Positions 9,631 to 18,651 of a stretch of 26,385 nt of DNA are shown one piece after another. The stretch is from a virus, in the IMG/VR virus record IMGVR_UViG_3300008107_000765, positions 1-26,385 of that record. One strand, 5' to 3'. The notes under the pieces are model-generated. The model did not search any database and had not been told where the DNA came from. It worked only from the letters and a program-made list of their open reading frames with translations. Both the position numbers and the translations under genes were made by a program. Within the stretch, counting starts at the first letter, position 1; every line of letters starts with the position of its first letter.

Positions 9631-9987
9631 ATGGATTTAGAAAGATATAATAATATATTAGTAAGTAAAAGAGAATTTACACAAATCAAAATTACTCCTA
9701 GCGTACCAACCCCAAACGATAATGATTATAAAAGGGGTTATATAGTTAGATATTTTGTACAAAAGGTAAATGATACAACTTCTCCTGTTTATGAGGTTAG
9801 TTCAAAATCACATAGTTCTTTTGTAAACAATTCTTTTTATAGTGTTGTATCTTTAGATTGGAGATTAACCGGAAGTGTTGAGCAAATAAAAGAATCTAAC
9901 TCAAACTCGGTAAAATTGGCTTCCGAAAGAATGAAAGCTATTTTGTTGTATCTTCCAAACTATTTGCAGTTTGCAAAGATTGGATAA
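9631..9987 (+). CDS. Small protein of unknown function at end of tail operon
   Basis: A 118-residue protein. I chose ATG 9631, directly after the preceding stop (TAAT-ATG), because the in-frame TTG at 9595 lies deep inside the upstream gene. The sequence has an ITPSVPTPNDNDYKRGYIVRYFVQK segment, followed by Ser-rich loops and a short C-terminal helix. I do not recognise a family. As the last gene of the baseplate run it may be a minor structural or assembly protein. Its last 50 bases overlap the end of the minus-strand gene at 9938-10957. Confidence 0.7.
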   Translation: MDLERYNNILVSKREFTQIKITPSVPTPNDNDYKRGYIVRYFVQKVNDTTSPVYEVSSKSHSSFVNNSFYSVVSLDWRLTGSVEQIKESNSNSVKLASERMKAILLYLPNYLQFAKIG

Positions 9988-10957
9988 TTTCTTCTTTATA
10001 CCTTTCGTATATACCACCATACTTATCCCAACAATTTCCATTAGTAAGTAATTCTTGTCCTGATTTTATAAGCATTTCTGCAATCTTTGGTAACTTACAA
10101 TTACACTCATCATTATTGATAAAATATTTAGCTCCCCATAAATGGTAATAACTTTCGTTAATCATTTCTTGAATAGACTTTCTATCTTCTTCTGCTGAAA
10201 ATCTATTAAAAAAAGCTGAATTGAATATTATTGGTAAAACTTGTCCTGAACGAAATATAGTATCAGTAGACATGTATTTTTCAACCAAAGCTCCTAACAT
10301 AGCTTGTTCGGCAAATATAACTGCTGCAGATGGGGCTATGTAAGAAGTAAGAATTCCATTTACAATAACATTATCTTTTAATAATTCTTCTGCTATGTTT
10401 ATAAACTCACCTTTATTATCTAATACAAAATTAAAATACCTTTGTGTGAATTCTTTTTTAAAAATTTCATTATTAAAATATAAAACGGCAGCATTAATTG
10501 GTGTAGAAATTCTAAAATAATACAACATATCGGATTCCCATTTAAATCCATTTGGGGTTGATATTTCATATGGTCTTGGATATACATTAGAAGTTTCTCT
10601 ATGTAAATAACCAAAATCAAAATGTTCAAATTCTTTTAATGGTCTACTATAAATTAAATCAGTATCTATAATAGCAAATGGTGTTGGTAATTTAGAAATA
10701 GCCCATATTTTGGGTGATGACCAAAATGCATCAGAAATTCTATCATATGGGTAATCATCAAATATATCCGTTATAACATCATCGTAGATATCCACCAATT
10801 CTAATGATTTAAAAATCTCAAATGATTTTTTATCTGTAAGTAAAATTATTGGTATTTTTGGATTTATCATTTTGTGTTTAATAACAGCATATAGTTGAAC
10901 TAAACATTCGTATGGAGAAATTTTAGTACTAATGATAAAAGAGTGGTAACATTTCAT
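9938..10957 (-). CDS. Glycosyltransferase-like protein (GT-A fold, GT8/DUF6734-like)
   Basis: A 339-residue protein read right to left, the only convincing minus-strand gene in the window. A Rossmann-like N-terminus is followed by PIILLTD (about residues 36-42), then FWSSPKIWAISKL and a metal-binding DxD-type AIIDTDLIYSRP (Asp98-Thr-Asp100). This order resembles nucleotide-sugar transferases of the GT8 type and DUF6734-like relatives. Expected role: transfer of a sugar from a nucleotide donor to an unknown acceptor, such as virion protein, phage DNA or host surface glycan. It overlaps the convergent gene 9631-9987 by 50 bases. Orientation, location among tail genes and isolation suggest a moron-like insertion. 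The start ATG is preceded by very AT-rich DNA without a clear promoter. Confidence 0.7.
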   Translation of the reverse strand: MKCYHSFIISTKISPYECLVQLYAVIKHKMINPKIPIILLTDKKSFEIFKSLELVDIYDDVITDIFDDYPYDRISDAFWSSPKIWAISKLPTPFAIIDTDLIYSRPLKEFEHFDFGYLHRETSNVYPRPYEISTPNGFKWESDMLYYFRISTPINAAVLYFNNEIFKKEFTQRYFNFVLDNKGEFINIAEELLKDNVIVNGILTSYIAPSAAVIFAEQAMLGALVEKYMSTDTIFRSGQVLPIIFNSAFFNRFSAEEDRKSIQEMINESYYHLWGAKYFINNDECNCKLPKIAEMLIKSGQELLTNGNCWDKYGGIYERYKEEIIQSLQTANSLEDTTK

Positions 10958-13056: not shown

Positions 13057-14343
13057 ATGAAGGTTGTTGAATCTATTAGTGAATATAACGAATTAACGAG
13101 CATATTGGAAACTGAAGCATCTCTTTGGTATCCTATGTGGGTAGATAATGATAAGCACCCGCAAAACACTTCTCTTTCGTTCATATTCATACGAACCCTA
13201 ACCGATAGGTATATTGTACCACATCAACATACAGACGCTCTATCACTCTCTAATGAGCAAATAGCTGGTTTGTTGAATACTATTGGTGAAAAGTGGGTTT
13301 TCCAAAAGAAAAAGCTACTACAATCTTTTATTACACCAATTAGGGAAGGGTTGAATGATGTTGATACGGCTTACTTTTTAAAGTATAGCGAATCAATAGA
13401 TTACCAACAACCAATACAACACTTAGTAGCTCCTTTATTACACAAAGGTTATAAAGAGGATATCATTCAATCCATTCCCATTCTTAAATTGTGTGAAGCA
13501 ATAGAACCGCAATTGGTAAAACATATCAATGAAAAAAGTAAAACTTATAATTGGTATAATGATATCTTCATACCACTCCTTTCAGAAATCGAACAATTTG
13601 GAATTCGGGTCGATAGGGAAAAATTTACTGATAGATGGCCACAAGCCCTAAAACATCTAACTTCCGATAATTTGATTTATACGGAGTACAATCCATTTAC
13701 GGTGACCGGTAGACCATCCAATAGACATGGTGGTATCAACTTCGCAGCCTTAAACAAATCGGATGGGACTAGAGATGTATTTGTATCGGATGGGATATTT
13801 CTACAAATGGACTATGATGCATATCACCCACGTCTTATTGGTAAAATGATAGGATTCACCCTACCACAAACATCGGTTCACCAATGGTTAGCGGAGCAAT
13901 ATGGGTGTGATGTAGGTGAAGGTAAGGGTATTACATTCCGACTTCTATATGGTGGTATTGATAAGGAGTTTCACCAAATACCATACTTTAAAGCCGTAGA
14001 TGAGTGGATTCAAAAGGTGTGGGAAGAAACATCAAAAAACGGATATCTCCAAACCCGATACCGCCACATTCCACTTAAATGGATTGAAGAACCAAATCCA
14101 CAAAAGGTGTTCAATTATCTTTTACAAGCGCTGGAAACGGAGATGAACGTTGATAAGATGGTAGGTATAATGAACTATATTAAGGGTACTGGTATTAAAA
14201 TGAGGTTGTACACATATGATTCATTTCTATTTGATTATCCTGCTGATAGTGATACACAATCCGCAAAATCCCTAAAAAGTATCATTGAAGATGGTGGGTT
14301 TCCAATCAAAGCCAGTTGGGGAATTGATTACGGAAAAGTGTAA
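13057..14343 (+). CDS. Compact, divergent family-A DNA polymerase
   Basis: A 428-residue protein, about half of E. coli Pol I. Polymerase motifs are in order. Motif A is QMDYDAYHPRLIG (Asp252) followed by SVHQWLAEQYG, matching the Pol I D-Y-S-Q-I-E-L-R region and its IHRATA-like continuation. Motif B is GKGITFRLLYGG (Lys290, Tyr298-Gly299). Motif C is TYDSFLFDY (Asp388). Both metal-binding Asp and the motif-B Lys are kept, but the motif-A Glu is His257 and the motif-C Glu is Ser389. The first ~170 residues look like a worn 3'-5' exonuclease domain: MWVDNDKHP stands where D-x-E is expected. It has its own host-type promoter and no leader. T4 itself uses a family-B polymerase. Whether this is the replicative enzyme or an accessory one cannot be told. 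Confidence 0.78.
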   Translation: MKVVESISEYNELTSILETEASLWYPMWVDNDKHPQNTSLSFIFIRTLTDRYIVPHQHTDALSLSNEQIAGLLNTIGEKWVFQKKKLLQSFITPIREGLNDVDTAYFLKYSESIDYQQPIQHLVAPLLHKGYKEDIIQSIPILKLCEAIEPQLVKHINEKSKTYNWYNDIFIPLLSEIEQFGIRVDREKFTDRWPQALKHLTSDNLIYTEYNPFTVTGRPSNRHGGINFAALNKSDGTRDVFVSDGIFLQMDYDAYHPRLIGKMIGFTLPQTSVHQWLAEQYGCDVGEGKGITFRLLYGGIDKEFHQIPYFKAVDEWIQKVWEETSKNGYLQTRYRHIPLKWIEEPNPQKVFNYLLQALETEMNVDKMVGIMNYIKGTGIKMRLYTYDSFLFDYPADSDTQSAKSLKSIIEDGGFPIKASWGIDYGKV

Positions 14344-14379: not shown

Positions 14380-14991
14380 ATGAAAAGATTCCTATACATT
14401 CTCCCTTTCCTAATTATTGGACTATTTGGAGCAGCTCAACAAAGTGATGTTGTAAGAGTGAAAAATGAAGTTTTTGAGGTAATGTACTCTCAATCTTTAG
14501 AACAACCCCTTTATATAAAGTATCGTTCTACAAACAGACCTACAAATGTTAATAGAGGTCATATGAATTTTTATACTGAAAAAAGTATTAAAACTTCGGA
14601 TGATATGGATTACAAAGGAAACATATATGATAAAGGACATGGTGCACCGGCTGCAACATTTTCTGATAATGAAACAAATTTAAAACAAACGTTTTCTTAT
14701 TTAAATTCAATAATGCAAGACCAATACCTTAATAGAGGTGAGTGGAGATTATTGGAAGAGCAAGAAAGAAAATGGGATGATAAGGAATCATTGACAGTAA
14801 TTATTAATTTAAACTTTGATAATCCAGCTAAAAGAGTTCCTACAAATGCAGCAATTCCTTCAAAATTACACAAACATATCCACTTTGAAAAATCAAACGT
14901 ATGGAAATGTTATTCATTCCCAAATGCAAGACCTGATAAAGGTTGGGAATCTTACGAAGTAAAATGTAACCAAAAGGAACATAAATTTTAA
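14380..14991 (+). CDS. DNA/RNA non-specific endonuclease (NUC1 family) with signal peptide
   Basis: A 203-residue protein of the beta-beta-alpha-metal nuclease type. The N-terminal MKRFLYILPFLIIGLFGAAQQ has a basic start, a hydrophobic core and a small-residue cleavage region near residues 18-20, so export is likely. The active-site motif is YDKGHGAPA (catalytic His87; the family has D-R-G-H). The downstream NSIMQDQYLNRGEW (Asn109, Gln113, Asn118, Trp122) matches the Mg-binding helix, followed by the usual Leu-Glu. Expected role: cutting DNA or RNA in the periplasm or outside the cell, such as host DNA released at lysis or DNA of a competing phage. It is preceded by a phage promoter-like box, and the next gene starts 6 bases after its stop. 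The Arg-to-Lys change is conservative. Compartment and target are inferred. Confidence 0.85.
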   Translation: MKRFLYILPFLIIGLFGAAQQSDVVRVKNEVFEVMYSQSLEQPLYIKYRSTNRPTNVNRGHMNFYTEKSIKTSDDMDYKGNIYDKGHGAPAATFSDNETNLKQTFSYLNSIMQDQYLNRGEWRLLEEQERKWDDKESLTVIINLNFDNPAKRVPTNAAIPSKLHKHIHFEKSNVWKCYSFPNARPDKGWESYEVKCNQKEHKF

Positions 14992-14997
14992 TAAAGT

Positions 14998-17900
14998 ATG
15001 ACGGTAGAGAACATAATAAATGAAATCCTTATAGAATGGGCTTATAGAGTTGATAATGGAACACCTAGCCCAAAAAACGATGAACATATTTCGGTTTTAT
15101 CTGAAGTATTAAGCGAAATGGGTTTATCTGCGATTAAGGATGAATTATTACAAAACCTTAGAGAAGAAGAAACTAAATACAAAAATCCAGCACTAAATAA
15201 AATTGTTAAATACAAAAGTAAAGATGGTGAGGATAAAGAAGGTGTAGTTGGAAATCTTTTAAGATTGAAAAGAGGAACACCTGGTAGAGAAGCAGCTGAA
15301 AAAACCTTACCACCTGAAGGAACTCCGGAAAGAGATAGTATGGATAATGAGTTAGGTTCTCAGAAAAAAGGTACAACTCAAGCTCAAAAACCTTCAGCTG
15401 AAAAACCAGCAGCAGATGCTGATACAAAAGCAGCACAATCTAAGATGTTTACTGATGACCCTGCTGCAAAAGCATCGGTTGAAAAGGAAAAAGATACAAT
15501 GGATAAGATAGCTAAAGCAGATGCTGAAGCTGATTCTGAAAATTCATTTGTAAATAAATTAAAAAACAAATTAAAGAGTTGGGGTAGTGAAGAGAAAAAA
15601 TTCTTCCAAAATGGTGAACATAAGCCAGGTTCTGAAACCCGTAGAACATTAGGTGAAGCTATTAAAGATAAAGCAAAATCAGTTGGTATAAAGATAGCAA
15701 CAACCGCAGTATTTGGTGCTGCTATGGGTGGATTATCACATGGAGCCGCTTACTTTGCTAAACACGTTGCCGTAGAATTTATACCACACGTTGTTGGTGA
15801 AACACTTTTAAAAGGAGTTGGTAGAGCAGCAATATTTGCCGATGCAGATGGTGAAGCGGAAACTGAAGCAAATATGATAAAGTTTGCTGAAATGATTGCA
15901 GATGGTATTGAAAATATGGAGATGTCTCCTGAAGATTTAGAAAAAATTGTAGATGGTTGGAATACTCATAAAGCTGGGATTGTTTATGAATCAATTGAAG
16001 AAGCTGATGGGAAACAATTTGTAAATCCAGTTTTAAATAAAGTTATAAAATATAAAAACGCCAAAGGTGAAGATGCTGAAGGTTTAATTGGAAATTTATT
16101 AAGATTACCAAAAGAACACCCTGGTAGACAGGCGGCAGAAAGACAATTACCACCGGAGGGAAGTCAAGAAAGAGACCAATTAAATAAAGATTTGGGTTCG
16201 GAGAAAGATGGTAAAGAACAACCATCTGCGGAAACACAACCACAAGCCCAACAACCTGAGCCGCAGCAGACTAAGAGTATGTATTCTGATGACCCTGCTA
16301 TGAAGGCTATGTTGGATAAGGAAAAGGAAGTGATGGCTAAATTAGCAAAAGTTGATGAACCAACAACTCCTACCAAAACAACCGAACCAACTGATAAGAG
16401 TGGATTCCAACCAATAGATGCGGCAGATGTACAATCTGAAATACCACAAGCTGATACAGACGCTTTTAGTGGTTTTTCAACAATTGATACAATTTCAGCT
16501 GAACAAATGAAATCAATATCAATGAAAATTGATGATTTGGCTAGAATGGCTGATGAGGCTAAAGCTAAAGGTTTAAACGCACCTAATTTTAATTTGTGTA
16601 AAATAACTGTACCTGGTACAAATTTATATTGTGATAATAATTTAGGTATCCCAAGAGAAGAGATGCCACAATTCAAAGGTAAACCTCAAGCCGGCTCTAA
16701 AGCAGAAAGTATGCCAAAGGATGCTAGTGGTGAAGTTGATACCGAACCGGTGTTTAGAGAAATGTTGGCAAAGAAAGGTATAAAAGTAGTTGATACTGAA
16801 GTACCATCAGATGCTCTTAAAGCAACTCAATCGGAATTGGTTGGTGCTAAAGTAGCTGGTATGACCAAAGCATTAGAAAAAGACCCAGAACATCCAAAAA
16901 TTACTGCTCCAATTTATGTAAGTAGAGATGGATATGTAATAGATGGACATCATCGTTGGGCAGCAATGACATCTAAAGCAATTAAAGATGGTACTCCAAC
17001 AAATATGAAAGTTAGAGTCATTGATATGGATGCTAAAGATATTATACCAATGGCAAATAAATTTGCTGAAGAAATTGGAGTAGCAGCTAAGAAAGCAGAT
17101 GCTAACGCTGAAGCACCTACATTACCAAAAGATTTACAACCAAAAGTAACCGATGATAAAAAAGGTGAAACCGCACAAACTGCAAGTGGTAAAAGATTAT
17201 ATAGTTTAGGTGGAGGATATTATTCAGATAAGCCGGGTGGTGAGGCAAAATATATTAGAACCGAATCAGTATTAGAAAAAGCATTAGTTCAAGAAGATGT
17301 TCAATCATTATTCCTATTGTTTGAAGAAACTTTAAGTGGTGTAACTGGTAAGGGTGAACGAATCACAGTAAAAGTTCTTCCACAAAAAGCAGTTAAAACT
17401 GCAACTGCTCAAGCTAAAAAAGTAGCTGGGGCTGGAAAGGAAGAAATAAGTAAAAAGTTTAGTAACCAAACTATAAAGAAGGAAGTAGAAAAATTAAATA
17501 CTATGGATTCTTTGGTTGTTAGTTCTGATAAAGAAACCAAAACCAGAGTAAACATTCTAAAAAAGAATTGGTTAAAATACCTAAATGCTGATACTAAAGA
17601 GAAAAAAATAGAAGCCCTTAAAGAAATGGCTGAATATAATTTGATTGAAGGGCATGCTGGTGGTAAAAAGATATATCTTTCGGCAAATACAACATTACCA
17701 TATAAACACTTAACTGGTGGGGCTGGTACAACTGTAACCGAAGAAATGAATCAGTTAATTATAGATGCTGGTATTGATGTACCATTGAGAGGTGGTGCAA
17801 AGGATAGGGCTTTGGCTGATATGAGTGGAAAGCATAATGAAGCTGGTGTTGTATCTTACATATTCTCATCAAAAGAAAACAAAGATGCTTATGCAGCTAC

Positions 17901-18651
17901 TCAAAAAAGTTTTAAAGAATTAGGTGGAGATGAACCTAAGTTTGATAAAATCAATAAAAAAGCAGCTGAAAGTATTAAAGAATTATTACCAAAAGGTTCT
18001 AAAATAACTGGGGCTCAGCAAGTTGGTGGTGTTGGTAAAACAGCCTTAATGAAATTGGGTATTGACCCTAAAGTAGACCCAACTGATTTGGTGGTACATT
18101 ATACTAACCCAAGTGGTAAGCAGGATATTATGAAAGTATCTGCTAAAACATATTCTGACCCTAAAAATATAACAATGAAAAATTCCGGCGTTACAAATGC
18201 TGGTGAAGTTTATTTAGGGAGTATTGGAAAGTCCGTAGATGACCAAGTTTCTCTTTGGAGAAAGAAATATGCTTGGAATGATTCAATGACAGAAGAACAA
18301 AAAGCAGAAAAAAAGAAAAACCTAAAACAGGAATACCTTTCAGCTTTTAGTAAGAAAATGGTAGAATTAAGTAAAACCGAACAAGGACAAAAACAACTTA
18401 CCAAAATGTGGAAAGATGTTCATGGTTGTGGTAAGAATGTATATACTCAAATTATTAACAAAAATACTGGAGAGGTTGAAGTAAAATCACCTGATTATTA
18501 TTGTAATCCAAAACCACCATATGAAATTAAATATGATGGTGTTAAATTGGTTATCAATATGGGAGGACAAGATAATACGTTTATTCAAATCGATATGAAA
18601 ACGGAAGATAAGGGTTCGCCAAAATTACTATTTAGACACAGAACCAAATAA
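14998..18651 (+). CDS. 1217-residue multidomain protein: repeats, ParB-like motif, possible nuclease-like C-terminus
   Basis: The longest gene in the window; I do not recognise it as a whole. Visible order: a ~50-residue N-terminal module (EILIEWAYRVDNGTPSPKND); repeat 1 (about residues 63-125) and an MFTDDPA motif (150); a Lys/Glu-rich region; a hydrophobic Gly/Ala segment (about 230-280); repeat 2 (343-405) and MYSDDPA (428); a Pro/Gln/Thr linker; then a ParB/sulfiredoxin-like core, SRDGYVIDGHHRWAAM (642-657); a second linker; and a folded C-terminal ~400 residues. There, HNEAG (946-950), PTDLVVHY (1028-1035) and KVSAKTY (1046-1052) are spaced like the acid, Asp and (E/S)xK of PD-(D/E)xK nucleases, which is tentative. 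A virion-internal or ejected DNA-acting protein is a plausible guess. It follows the nuclease gene by 6 bases, presumably in one operon. Confidence 0.8.
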   Translation: MTVENIINEILIEWAYRVDNGTPSPKNDEHISVLSEVLSEMGLSAIKDELLQNLREEETKYKNPALNKIVKYKSKDGEDKEGVVGNLLRLKRGTPGREAAEKTLPPEGTPERDSMDNELGSQKKGTTQAQKPSAEKPAADADTKAAQSKMFTDDPAAKASVEKEKDTMDKIAKADAEADSENSFVNKLKNKLKSWGSEEKKFFQNGEHKPGSETRRTLGEAIKDKAKSVGIKIATTAVFGAAMGGLSHGAAYFAKHVAVEFIPHVVGETLLKGVGRAAIFADADGEAETEANMIKFAEMIADGIENMEMSPEDLEKIVDGWNTHKAGIVYESIEEADGKQFVNPVLNKVIKYKNAKGEDAEGLIGNLLRLPKEHPGRQAAERQLPPEGSQERDQLNKDLGSEKDGKEQPSAETQPQAQQPEPQQTKSMYSDDPAMKAMLDKEKEVMAKLAKVDEPTTPTKTTEPTDKSGFQPIDAADVQSEIPQADTDAFSGFSTIDTISAEQMKSISMKIDDLARMADEAKAKGLNAPNFNLCKITVPGTNLYCDNNLGIPREEMPQFKGKPQAGSKAESMPKDASGEVDTEPVFREMLAKKGIKVVDTEVPSDALKATQSELVGAKVAGMTKALEKDPEHPKITAPIYVSRDGYVIDGHHRWAAMTSKAIKDGTPTNMKVRVIDMDAKDIIPMANKFAEEIGVAAKKADANAEAPTLPKDLQPKVTDDKKGETAQTASGKRLYSLGGGYYSDKPGGEAKYIRTESVLEKALVQEDVQSLFLLFEETLSGVTGKGERITVKVLPQKAVKTATAQAKKVAGAGKEEISKKFSNQTIKKEVEKLNTMDSLVVSSDKETKTRVNILKKNWLKYLNADTKEKKIEALKEMAEYNLIEGHAGGKKIYLSANTTLPYKHLTGGAGTTVTEEMNQLIIDAGIDVPLRGGAKDRALADMSGKHNEAGVVSYIFSSKENKDAYAATQKSFKELGGDEPKFDKINKKAAESIKELLPKGSKITGAQQVGGVGKTALMKLGIDPKVDPTDLVVHYTNPSGKQDIMKVSAKTYSDPKNITMKNSGVTNAGEVYLGSIGKSVDDQVSLWRKKYAWNDSMTEEQKAEKKKNLKQEYLSAFSKKMVELSKTEQGQKQLTKMWKDVHGCGKNVYTQIINKNTGEVEVKSPDYYCNPKPPYEIKYDGVKLVINMGGQDNTFIQIDMKTEDKGSPKLLFRHRTK
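15184..15372 (+). repeat. Tandem-type protein repeat copy 1 in 1217-residue protein
   Basis: Encodes NPALNKIVKYKSKDGEDKEG, then GNLLRLKRGTPGREAAEKTL, then PPEGTPERDSMDNELGS. About 30 bases later comes MFTDDPA. Copy 2 begins exactly 840 bases (280 codons) downstream and has the same anchors. Confidence 0.9.
16024..16215 (+). repeat. Tandem-type protein repeat copy 2 in 1217-residue protein
   Basis: Encodes NPVLNKVIKYKNAKGEDAEG, GNLLRLPKEHPGRQAAERQL and PPEGSQERDQLNKDLGS, followed by MYSDDPA as in copy 1. Roughly two thirds of residues agree with copy 1, so the whole ~90-residue unit was duplicated within the gene. Confidence 0.9.

What the first reader, a model, noticed from the sequence alone, without database searches (positions are those of the whole stretch)
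14998..18651. 1217-residue mosaic protein with internal duplication, ParB-like motif and possible nuclease C-terminus
A single reading frame combines an N-terminal module, two ~90-residue repeats, a hydrophobic segment, a ParB-like core (DGYVIDGHHRWAAM) and a ~400-residue C-terminus with acid-Asp-SxK spacing reminiscent of PD-(D/E)xK nucleases. It resembles no single family I know. It could be a virion-internal or ejected protein that attacks DNA or interferes with host defence, and it sits next to a secreted nuclease.
Basis: partly seen in the sequence, partly recalled or inferred. Interest (0 to 1): 0.75.

Follow-up and report, generated by a model that had tools for sequence, protein, structure and literature searches.

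The report
Phage head cargo polyprotein with nuclease
A virus of water bacteria seems to string several injected weapons (a membrane-seeking piece, a ParB-like enzyme and a DNA-cutting enzyme) into one long protein that its own head-maturation protease probably cuts into separate cargo proteins inside the virus head.

Summary
The frame is real: full-length relatives exist, and L001-L003 are 96-97% identical. It has a duplicated segment, a hydrophobic module, a ParB-like core and a C-terminal module with invariant E948, D1030, S1048 and K1050. Structure prediction supports both fold guesses. The ParB part matches only ParB/sulfiredoxin folds. The C-terminus best matches MspI restriction endonuclease, modestly.

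The new point is the organisation. Every module also occurs in relatives as a separate protein headed by a T4-like capsid-targeting peptide (M-I-K-L-x-x-L-L-x-E). Several of these lie between the prohead protease and capsid genes. In the window protein the T4 protease motif L/I-x-E occurs 11 times: five in the N-terminal 56 residues, two at the junctions between modules, four inside modules. Across relatives the junction sites occur in 15/19 and 18/19 cases (about 1.6 expected). A distant homologue of the ParB module is a mass-spectrometry-confirmed virion protein of phage LIMEstone1.

Best reading: a virion cargo polyprotein, targeted into the prohead, cut by the gp21-type protease into a membrane-active piece, a ParB piece and a nuclease, and ejected with the DNA. 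Cutting, packaging and activity are inferred, not shown. Polyvalent ejected proteins are known; processing through internal capsid-targeting/prohead-protease sites appears new.

The parts
14998..15165 (+). Residues 1-56: N-terminal element (EWAYRVxNGxPxPKN..H), proposed long capsid-targeting propeptide; holds five of the protein's eleven L/I-x-E motifs and ends NLRE|EE
   Evidence: Profile A1 matches one ORF per relative record and the N-terminus of immuto26A_193 in the head cluster of cultured Flavobacterium phage immuto, E=1.4e-9; motif positions
15166..15522 (+). Residues 57-175: leader repeat 1 (YKNPALNKIVKYK..GNLLRL..PGR..AAE) plus linker
   Evidence: 36/61 identical to repeat 2; in L009:14362 the same leader directly follows a short N-terminal MIKLTNLLDE|
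15523..15990 (+). Residues 176-331: hydrophobic/amphipathic module (T), with a 42-aa in-frame deletion relative to L001-L004
   Evidence: Present in stand-alone L009:14362-15507 and in many polyproteins; hydropathy; deletion
15979..16014 (+). Predicted prohead-protease site 1 and flanks: GIVYESIEE|ADG, cut after E335
   Evidence: Matches T4 L/I-x-E (PMC9026906; position); strict-motif site within 35 aa after T in 15/19 relatives, 1.6 expected
16003..16404 (+). Residues 336-469: leader repeat 2 plus linker
16405..17121 (+). Residues 470-708: ParB/sulfiredoxin-like module; core DGHHRW around 649-654
   Evidence: PHROG 2859 E=4.5e-21 and ParB-like PHROG 2159 E=1.3e-4; AlphaFold model, top 11 PDB hits all ParB-N/Srx/Noc; at least 159 viral loci
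17188..17325 (+). Residues 731-776: GGGYY tag and internal capsid-targeting-like element ESVLEKALVQEDVQSLFLLFE|ETL, predicted site 2 after E776
   Evidence: Site in 18/19 relatives, 1.7 expected; identity 0.58 at -6..-1 against 0.26 on both sides
17326..18648 (+). Residues 777-1217: nuclease-like module, PD-(D/E)xK-type (E948, D1030, S1048, K1050)
   Evidence: 12-row alignment; AlphaFold pLDDT 84.3; Foldseek MspI E=8.7e-3 prob 0.95; cyanophage proteins E 1.8e-5 to 2e-2
14380..14991 (+). Neighbouring DNA/RNA non-specific endonuclease with signal-peptide-like start, 6 bp upstream; conserved neighbour, not part of the polyprotein
   Evidence: Pfam Endonuclease_NS E=1.3e-20; linked in 45 of 76 polyprotein loci

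Best explanation
P0001 is a virion cargo polyprotein of a T4-related myovirus, probably of Bacteroidota. Its N-terminal ~56 residues act as a capsid-targeting propeptide that brings the chain into the prohead. During head maturation the phage's gp21-type prohead protease cuts after L/I-x-E at about residues 56, 335 and 776. This releases a leader plus hydrophobic piece (57-335), a leader plus ParB/Srx-fold piece (336-776) and an MspI-like PD-(D/E)xK piece (777-1217). They stay in the head and enter the cell with the DNA. There the nuclease and ParB enzyme act on DNA or nucleotides (host chromosome, resident plasmids or defence systems) and the hydrophobic piece may help passage through, or act on, the membrane. 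Shown here: module architecture, conservation, predicted folds, stand-alone relatives, head-cluster context, site placement. Inferred: cutting, packaging, ejection, catalytic activity, targets.
For: (1) Each predicted product exists alone, headed by a short CTS-like N-terminus: leader+hydrophobic = L009:14362 MIKLTNLLDE|A; ParB = L102/L103 MIKL(K/N)NLLIE|A and L014 MRLKNLLLE|A; nuclease = L074 MRNLYKTFTSLLFE|D. (2) In about ten loci the ParB protein lies close to the prohead protease (PF03420 hits in two parent records) and the scaffold/capsid genes. (3) L/I-x-E occurs 11 times: five in residues 1-56, two at the junctions (335, 776), four inside modules (220, 876, 884, 995); none in the long E-rich linkers. 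T4 gp21 cuts after L/I-x-E (PMC9026906). (4) Junction sites 15/19 and 18/19 against 1.6 and 1.7 expected, with a conservation island at the site. (5) The internal 11-mer KSTRLTSILKE of polyprotein L014 is the N-terminus of the next gene. (6) A ParB-module homologue is a mass-spectrometry-confirmed virion protein in LIMEstone1: GenBank ORF101, 149 aa; Table 2 row of 17.31 kDa, 35.57% = 53/149, 5 peptides. (7) The N-terminal profile finds a head-cluster gene in phage immuto. (8) Folds.
Against: A mechanical test on BLAST segment borders was negative (22 sites against 44 expected). The module-based test was designed afterwards, and its sequences are related. L/I-x-E is short, and four of the eleven sites lie inside modules. 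The window's own head genes lie outside the contig, so its protease is inferred from relatives. No proteomics exists for this phage. The LIMEstone1 protein carries no obvious CTS and is only 28% identical. The MspI match is modest (TM 0.26-0.37), its Pfam profile does not match, and the model rests on 12 sequences. The polyprotein gene sits in the tail/late region, not in the head cluster.
Confidence: 0.62

Rival explanations
1. An uncut polyvalent virion protein: the whole chain (minus perhaps its N-terminal propeptide) is packaged and ejected as one molecule, like N4 virion RNA polymerase.
For: Large PLxRFG-annotated and structural proteins of F116-like Pseudomonas phages carry the ParB-module homologue. 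N4 vRNAP is packaged unprocessed (PMC5512222). L/I-x-E is short.
Against: Module-wise stand-alone CTS-led relatives and conserved junction sites are unneeded if the chain stays whole.
Confidence: 0.2
2. Not a virion protein: an intracellular late protein whose modules act during infection (DNA degradation, exclusion of rivals); the LLxE segments are ordinary amphipathic linkers.
For: The gene lies beside endolysin, ssb and recA-like genes, away from the head cluster. The LIMEstone-type homologues have no obvious CTS. One search was negative.
Against: Head-cluster stand-alone relatives, the MS-confirmed virion homologue, the immuto head-cluster N-terminus.
Confidence: 0.12
3. The modules form a DNA-organising or DNA-condensing internal head protein; the nuclease-like and ParB-like folds are catalytically dead.
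For: Some members of nuclease-fold families are binding-only (general knowledge). A nuclease packed with its own DNA needs control. No activity was tested; the fold match is modest.
Against: E948, D1030, S1048, K1050 and the ParB GHHR arginine are invariant across distant relatives, as expected of active sites.
Confidence: 0.06

Closest known systems
Polyvalent proteins of phages and conjugative elements (Iyer et al. 2017, PMC5512222), incl. phage P1 DdrB
   Same: Large multidomain protein with a ParB/Srx-fold domain and other DNA-targeting activity; predicted to be ejected with DNA; domains thought to be separated by proteolysis
   Different: No metallopeptidase domain found; separation would rely on the prohead protease at L/I-x-E sites. 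ParB is joined to another DNase-like domain, which that paper reports as not seen. CTS-like elements are not part of that description
T4 internal proteins IPI-III and Alt with capsid-targeting sequences cut by gp21 (PMC9026906, PMC5694885)
   Same: Short N-terminal peptide ending in L/I-x-E; gp21-family protease and gp23-type capsid in relatives; ejected effectors
   Different: T4 proteins carry one cargo each; here several cargo modules in one chain with internal CTS-like elements and a ~56-residue N-terminal element
SPN3US/phiKZ head ejection proteins with long propeptides (PMC7411985, PMC5694885)
   Same: Long N-terminal propeptides with several cleavage motifs removed by a gp21-like protease
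   Different: Motif is A/S-x-E there; multi-module effector chains not seen in the passages read
LIMEstone1/ViI-type virion ParB-like proteins
   Same: Homologous ParB-fold core with conserved DG(S/H)HR; MS-confirmed in virions
   Different: 149-aa stand-alone protein with no obvious CTS and no nuclease
MspI restriction endonuclease (PDB 1sa3)
   Same: Best PDB fold match; D before one strand, SxK in the next strand of a hairpin in the model
   Different: 10% identity, TM 0.26/0.37; Pfam MspI profile does not match; larger, with an N-terminal helical part

Membership tests
Polyvalent protein (Iyer et al. 2017) | Several domains of disparate biochemical activity in one polypeptide | tested here: met
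   ParB/Srx fold and PD-(D/E)xK-like fold plus hydrophobic module
Polyvalent protein (Iyer et al. 2017) | Delivered with the DNA in early infection | not testable with these tools
   Only context and a distant virion-confirmed homologue
Polyvalent protein (Iyer et al. 2017) | Common MPTase (zincin) processing domain | tested here: not met
   No Pfam peptidase match in P0001 even at E<=1; the domain is common but not required in that class
ParB/sulfiredoxin superfamily | alpha+beta ParB/Srx fold | tested here: met
   Top 11 PDB fold hits all ParB-N, Srx, Noc or ParB; best E 0.033, prob 0.99
ParB/sulfiredoxin superfamily | Conserved active-site arginine | tested here: met
   GHHR invariant in 28 rows; GSHR/GHHR in remote homologues
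PD-(D/E)xK nucleases | Core fold with catalytic D and (D/E/S..)xK on neighbouring strands | tested here: met
   D1030 next to strand 222-227 and SxK in strand 233-243 of the model; best PDB hit MspI; residues invariant. Modest score
PD-(D/E)xK nucleases | Nuclease activity | not testable with these tools
   needs an assay
Pfam Endonuc-MspI (PF09208) | Match to the family profile | tested here: not met
   No match at E<=10 in five relative records
CTS-bearing substrates of gp21-type prohead protease | N-terminal peptide ending L/I-x-E | tested here: met
   Residues 1-56 with LRE|E and four more motifs; short MIKLxxLLxE forms in stand-alone relatives
CTS-bearing substrates of gp21-type prohead protease | gp21-family protease in the same phage | tested here: inconclusive
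   Found in relatives G001, G003, G010, G011; window record lacks the head region
CTS-bearing substrates of gp21-type prohead protease | Observed cleavage and packaging | not testable with these tools
   needs virion proteomics

The most novel reading that the evidence does not exclude
Aquatic T4-related phages make polyproteins for their ejected cargo: one translated chain holds several effector modules, separated by internal capsid-targeting and prohead-protease elements, so that one gene loads several different enzymes in fixed ratio into each head. The downstream modules are swapped between phages like cassettes at these sites.
Probability: 0.5. Interest if true: 0.8.

Novelty: new variant of a known kind. 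Interest (0 to 1): 0.66.

Why it matters
If true, it gives a simple rule for finding ejected effectors: whatever follows an LLxE| element. It predicts many packaged enzymes in uncultured aquatic phages, including a PD-(D/E)xK-like nuclease family with no sequence match in 50,697 phage records. It also joins two known themes, polyvalent ejected proteins and T4 capsid-targeting, in one directly testable design: proteomics of a single cultured relative would decide it.

Tried and rejected
A first statistical test using BLAST segment borders as module borders was negative (22 sites observed, 44 expected). Those borders seem to fall mostly in linkers, so I redid it with profile-defined modules; the second test is therefore post hoc. 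A combined hydrophobic+ParB alignment for folding was discarded because MAFFT misplaced the hydrophobic fragments, so that module was not folded. Pfam and PDB sequence searches of the full protein and of the nuclease and ParB profiles gave nothing useful; ParBc_2 appears only below cut-off. No C-terminal relatives were found in bacterial genomes or, at sequence level, in phage records or two cyanophage records, although cyanophage proteins match by fold. MspI family membership was rejected. Papers on MspI catalytic residues were not found; my recollection that MspI uses Asp99/Asn117/Lys119 with the same spacing is a lead only.

Full report
What it is. The window is a 26-kb record of a T4-related myovirus (tail tube, tape measure, endolysin and T4-type ssb by profile; baseplate-like, RecA-like, RNase H-like and helicase-like genes by inspection). 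The ORF 14998-18651 is a real gene: L001-L003 encode it at 96-97% identity and L004 encodes a longer version.

Modules. By profile the protein reads: N-terminal element 1-61, leader repeat 61-121, hydrophobic module 178-329, leader repeat 341-401, ParB module 470-708, GGGYY tag 731-758, nuclease-like module 813-1217. These modules are shuffled among relatives. L007-L013 keep the front and the ParB module but have other C-termini; L005/L006 have the nuclease behind a different front; L010-L013 have the hydrophobic module after the ParB module. The ParB module is found in at least 159 viral loci.

Folds. The nuclease-like module was modelled with 12 relatives (pLDDT 84.3, pTM 0.64). The best PDB match is MspI restriction endonuclease (E 8.7e-3, probability 0.95), and no other match exceeds probability 0.33 among the 50 listed. 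Among viral models it matches uncharacterised proteins of T4-like cyanophages. D1030 lies at the start of a strand followed by a hairpin strand that carries S1048-x-K1050; these and E948 are invariant. The ParB module (pLDDT 79.8) matches ParB-N, sulfiredoxin, Noc or ParB in all of its top 11 hits. Both matches are modest in score but consistent with the motifs. The hydrophobic module was not modelled; its hydropathy is below a classical transmembrane helix in the window copy, and higher in some relatives.

Each module stands alone elsewhere behind a capsid-targeting-like peptide. L009:14362-15507 is MIKLTNLLDE| + leader + hydrophobic module. L102/L103 are MIKL(K/N)NLLIE| + ParB module and L014 is MRLKNLLLE| + ParB module. 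L074 is MRNLYKTFTSLLFE| + nuclease module. In record G003 the ParB protein lies between the prohead protease (PF03420) and the scaffold and capsid genes. In G001 a row of small genes, several with MIKLxx(L/I)LxE starts, fills the same place. T4 internal proteins carry 10-20-residue capsid-targeting sequences removed by gp21, which cuts after L/I-x-E (PMC7411985, PMC9026906).

Sites in the window protein. L/I-x-E occurs 11 times: at 9, 13, 36, 40 and 56 in the N-terminal element; at 335 (SIEE|ADGK) and 776 (LLFE|ETL), the two junctions; and at 220, 876, 884 and 995 inside modules. The long linkers, rich in E and K, have none. Several sites in one propeptide are also known in phiKZ, where they are thought to ensure removal (PMC9026906).

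Sites in relatives. In 19 non-redundant long proteins a stricter motif lies within 35 residues after the hydrophobic module in 15 (1.6 expected by position), and in 19 within 30 residues after the tag downstream of ParB in 18 (1.7 expected). Aligned at the second site, identity is 0.58 in the six residues before the cut and 0.26 on either side. These tests came after a negative first test on BLAST borders, and the sequences are related, so the counts are not independent. An independent hint: the internal 11-mer KSTRLTSILKE of polyprotein L014 is the N-terminus of the next gene (none of 2530 control N-termini had a 7-mer match, although a few chance 7-mers also appear among the CTS set).

Virion evidence from cultured phages. 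The ParB core has a homologue in hundreds of Ackermannviridae and other phages. In LIMEstone1 it is GenBank ORF101, 149 aa, marked as a confirmed structural protein. The published table lists a 17.31-kDa protein under ORF 102 with 35.57% coverage, which equals 53 of 149 residues, so the numbering appears shifted by one. The pairwise match is 28%, E 9e-15. The N-terminal element profile matches the N-terminus of immuto26A_193 in Flavobacterium phage immuto, E 1.4e-9, a few genes upstream of the terminase and in the same cluster as portal, prohead protease and capsid. This also suggests a Bacteroidota host for the window phage.

Mechanism proposed. Targeting by the N-terminal element, cutting at 56, 335 and 776, retention of three pieces of 279, 441 and 441 residues, ejection with DNA, then action on DNA or nucleotides and at the membrane. 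The architecture and site placement are shown; cutting, packaging, ejection and activity are inferred.

Relation to known systems. It works like the polyvalent ejected proteins of Iyer et al. 2017 (PMC5512222), which those authors suppose are separated by a metallopeptidase domain. No such domain was found here, and the prohead protease would take its place. They also report that ParB-like DNases in such proteins are not accompanied by other DNase domains; here one is. In the open-access papers searched, no work links polyvalent proteins with prohead-protease processing (only Iyer et al. held both terms, and the prohead protease only in the reference list). I therefore rate it a new variant of a known kind.

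Noticed in passing
about 15670-15690: In-frame 126-bp deletion in the window copy relative to L001-L004, removing 42 residues of the hydrophobic module.
   Followed up: partly
14380-14991: Endonuclease_NS gene with a signal-peptide-like start ends 6 bp before the polyprotein; linked in 45 of 76 polyprotein loci; the neighbourhood often also holds a polA C-terminal part, a 135-aa ORF, endolysin and ssb.
   Followed up: partly
13057-14343: 428-aa DNA polymerase C-terminal part (PHROG 17) as a separate gene among late genes; conserved next to the secreted nuclease in relatives.
   Followed up: no
L092:4882-9354 and G001:135646-139641: A second kind of long chain with a CTS-like start: in L092, near the terminase gene, a cytidylyltransferase-like domain (PF01467), the ParB module and a GNAT-like domain; G001 has the same GRFQPFH start.
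   Followed up: partly
L004 residues about 600-680: L004 carries an extra segment with a possible second ParB-like core (LVAGNTRLMSF) upstream of the main ParB module; no Pfam or PHROG match.
   Followed up: no
L007/L009 residues about 195-435: Another inserted module (DIVFVGEGG...WDGDELDVHDDQ...TIAGESH) shared by many chains; no Pfam or PHROG match in L009.
   Followed up: no
L014 residues about 600-930: Long proline-rich tail (PPPPPPPPP, GVKAKPPV repeats) in the G003 head-cluster ParB protein.
   Followed up: no
9938-10957 (-): A 339-aa reverse-strand ORF (weak DUF6734 match below cut-off) amid forward tail genes, possibly a glycosyltransferase-like gene.
   Followed up: no
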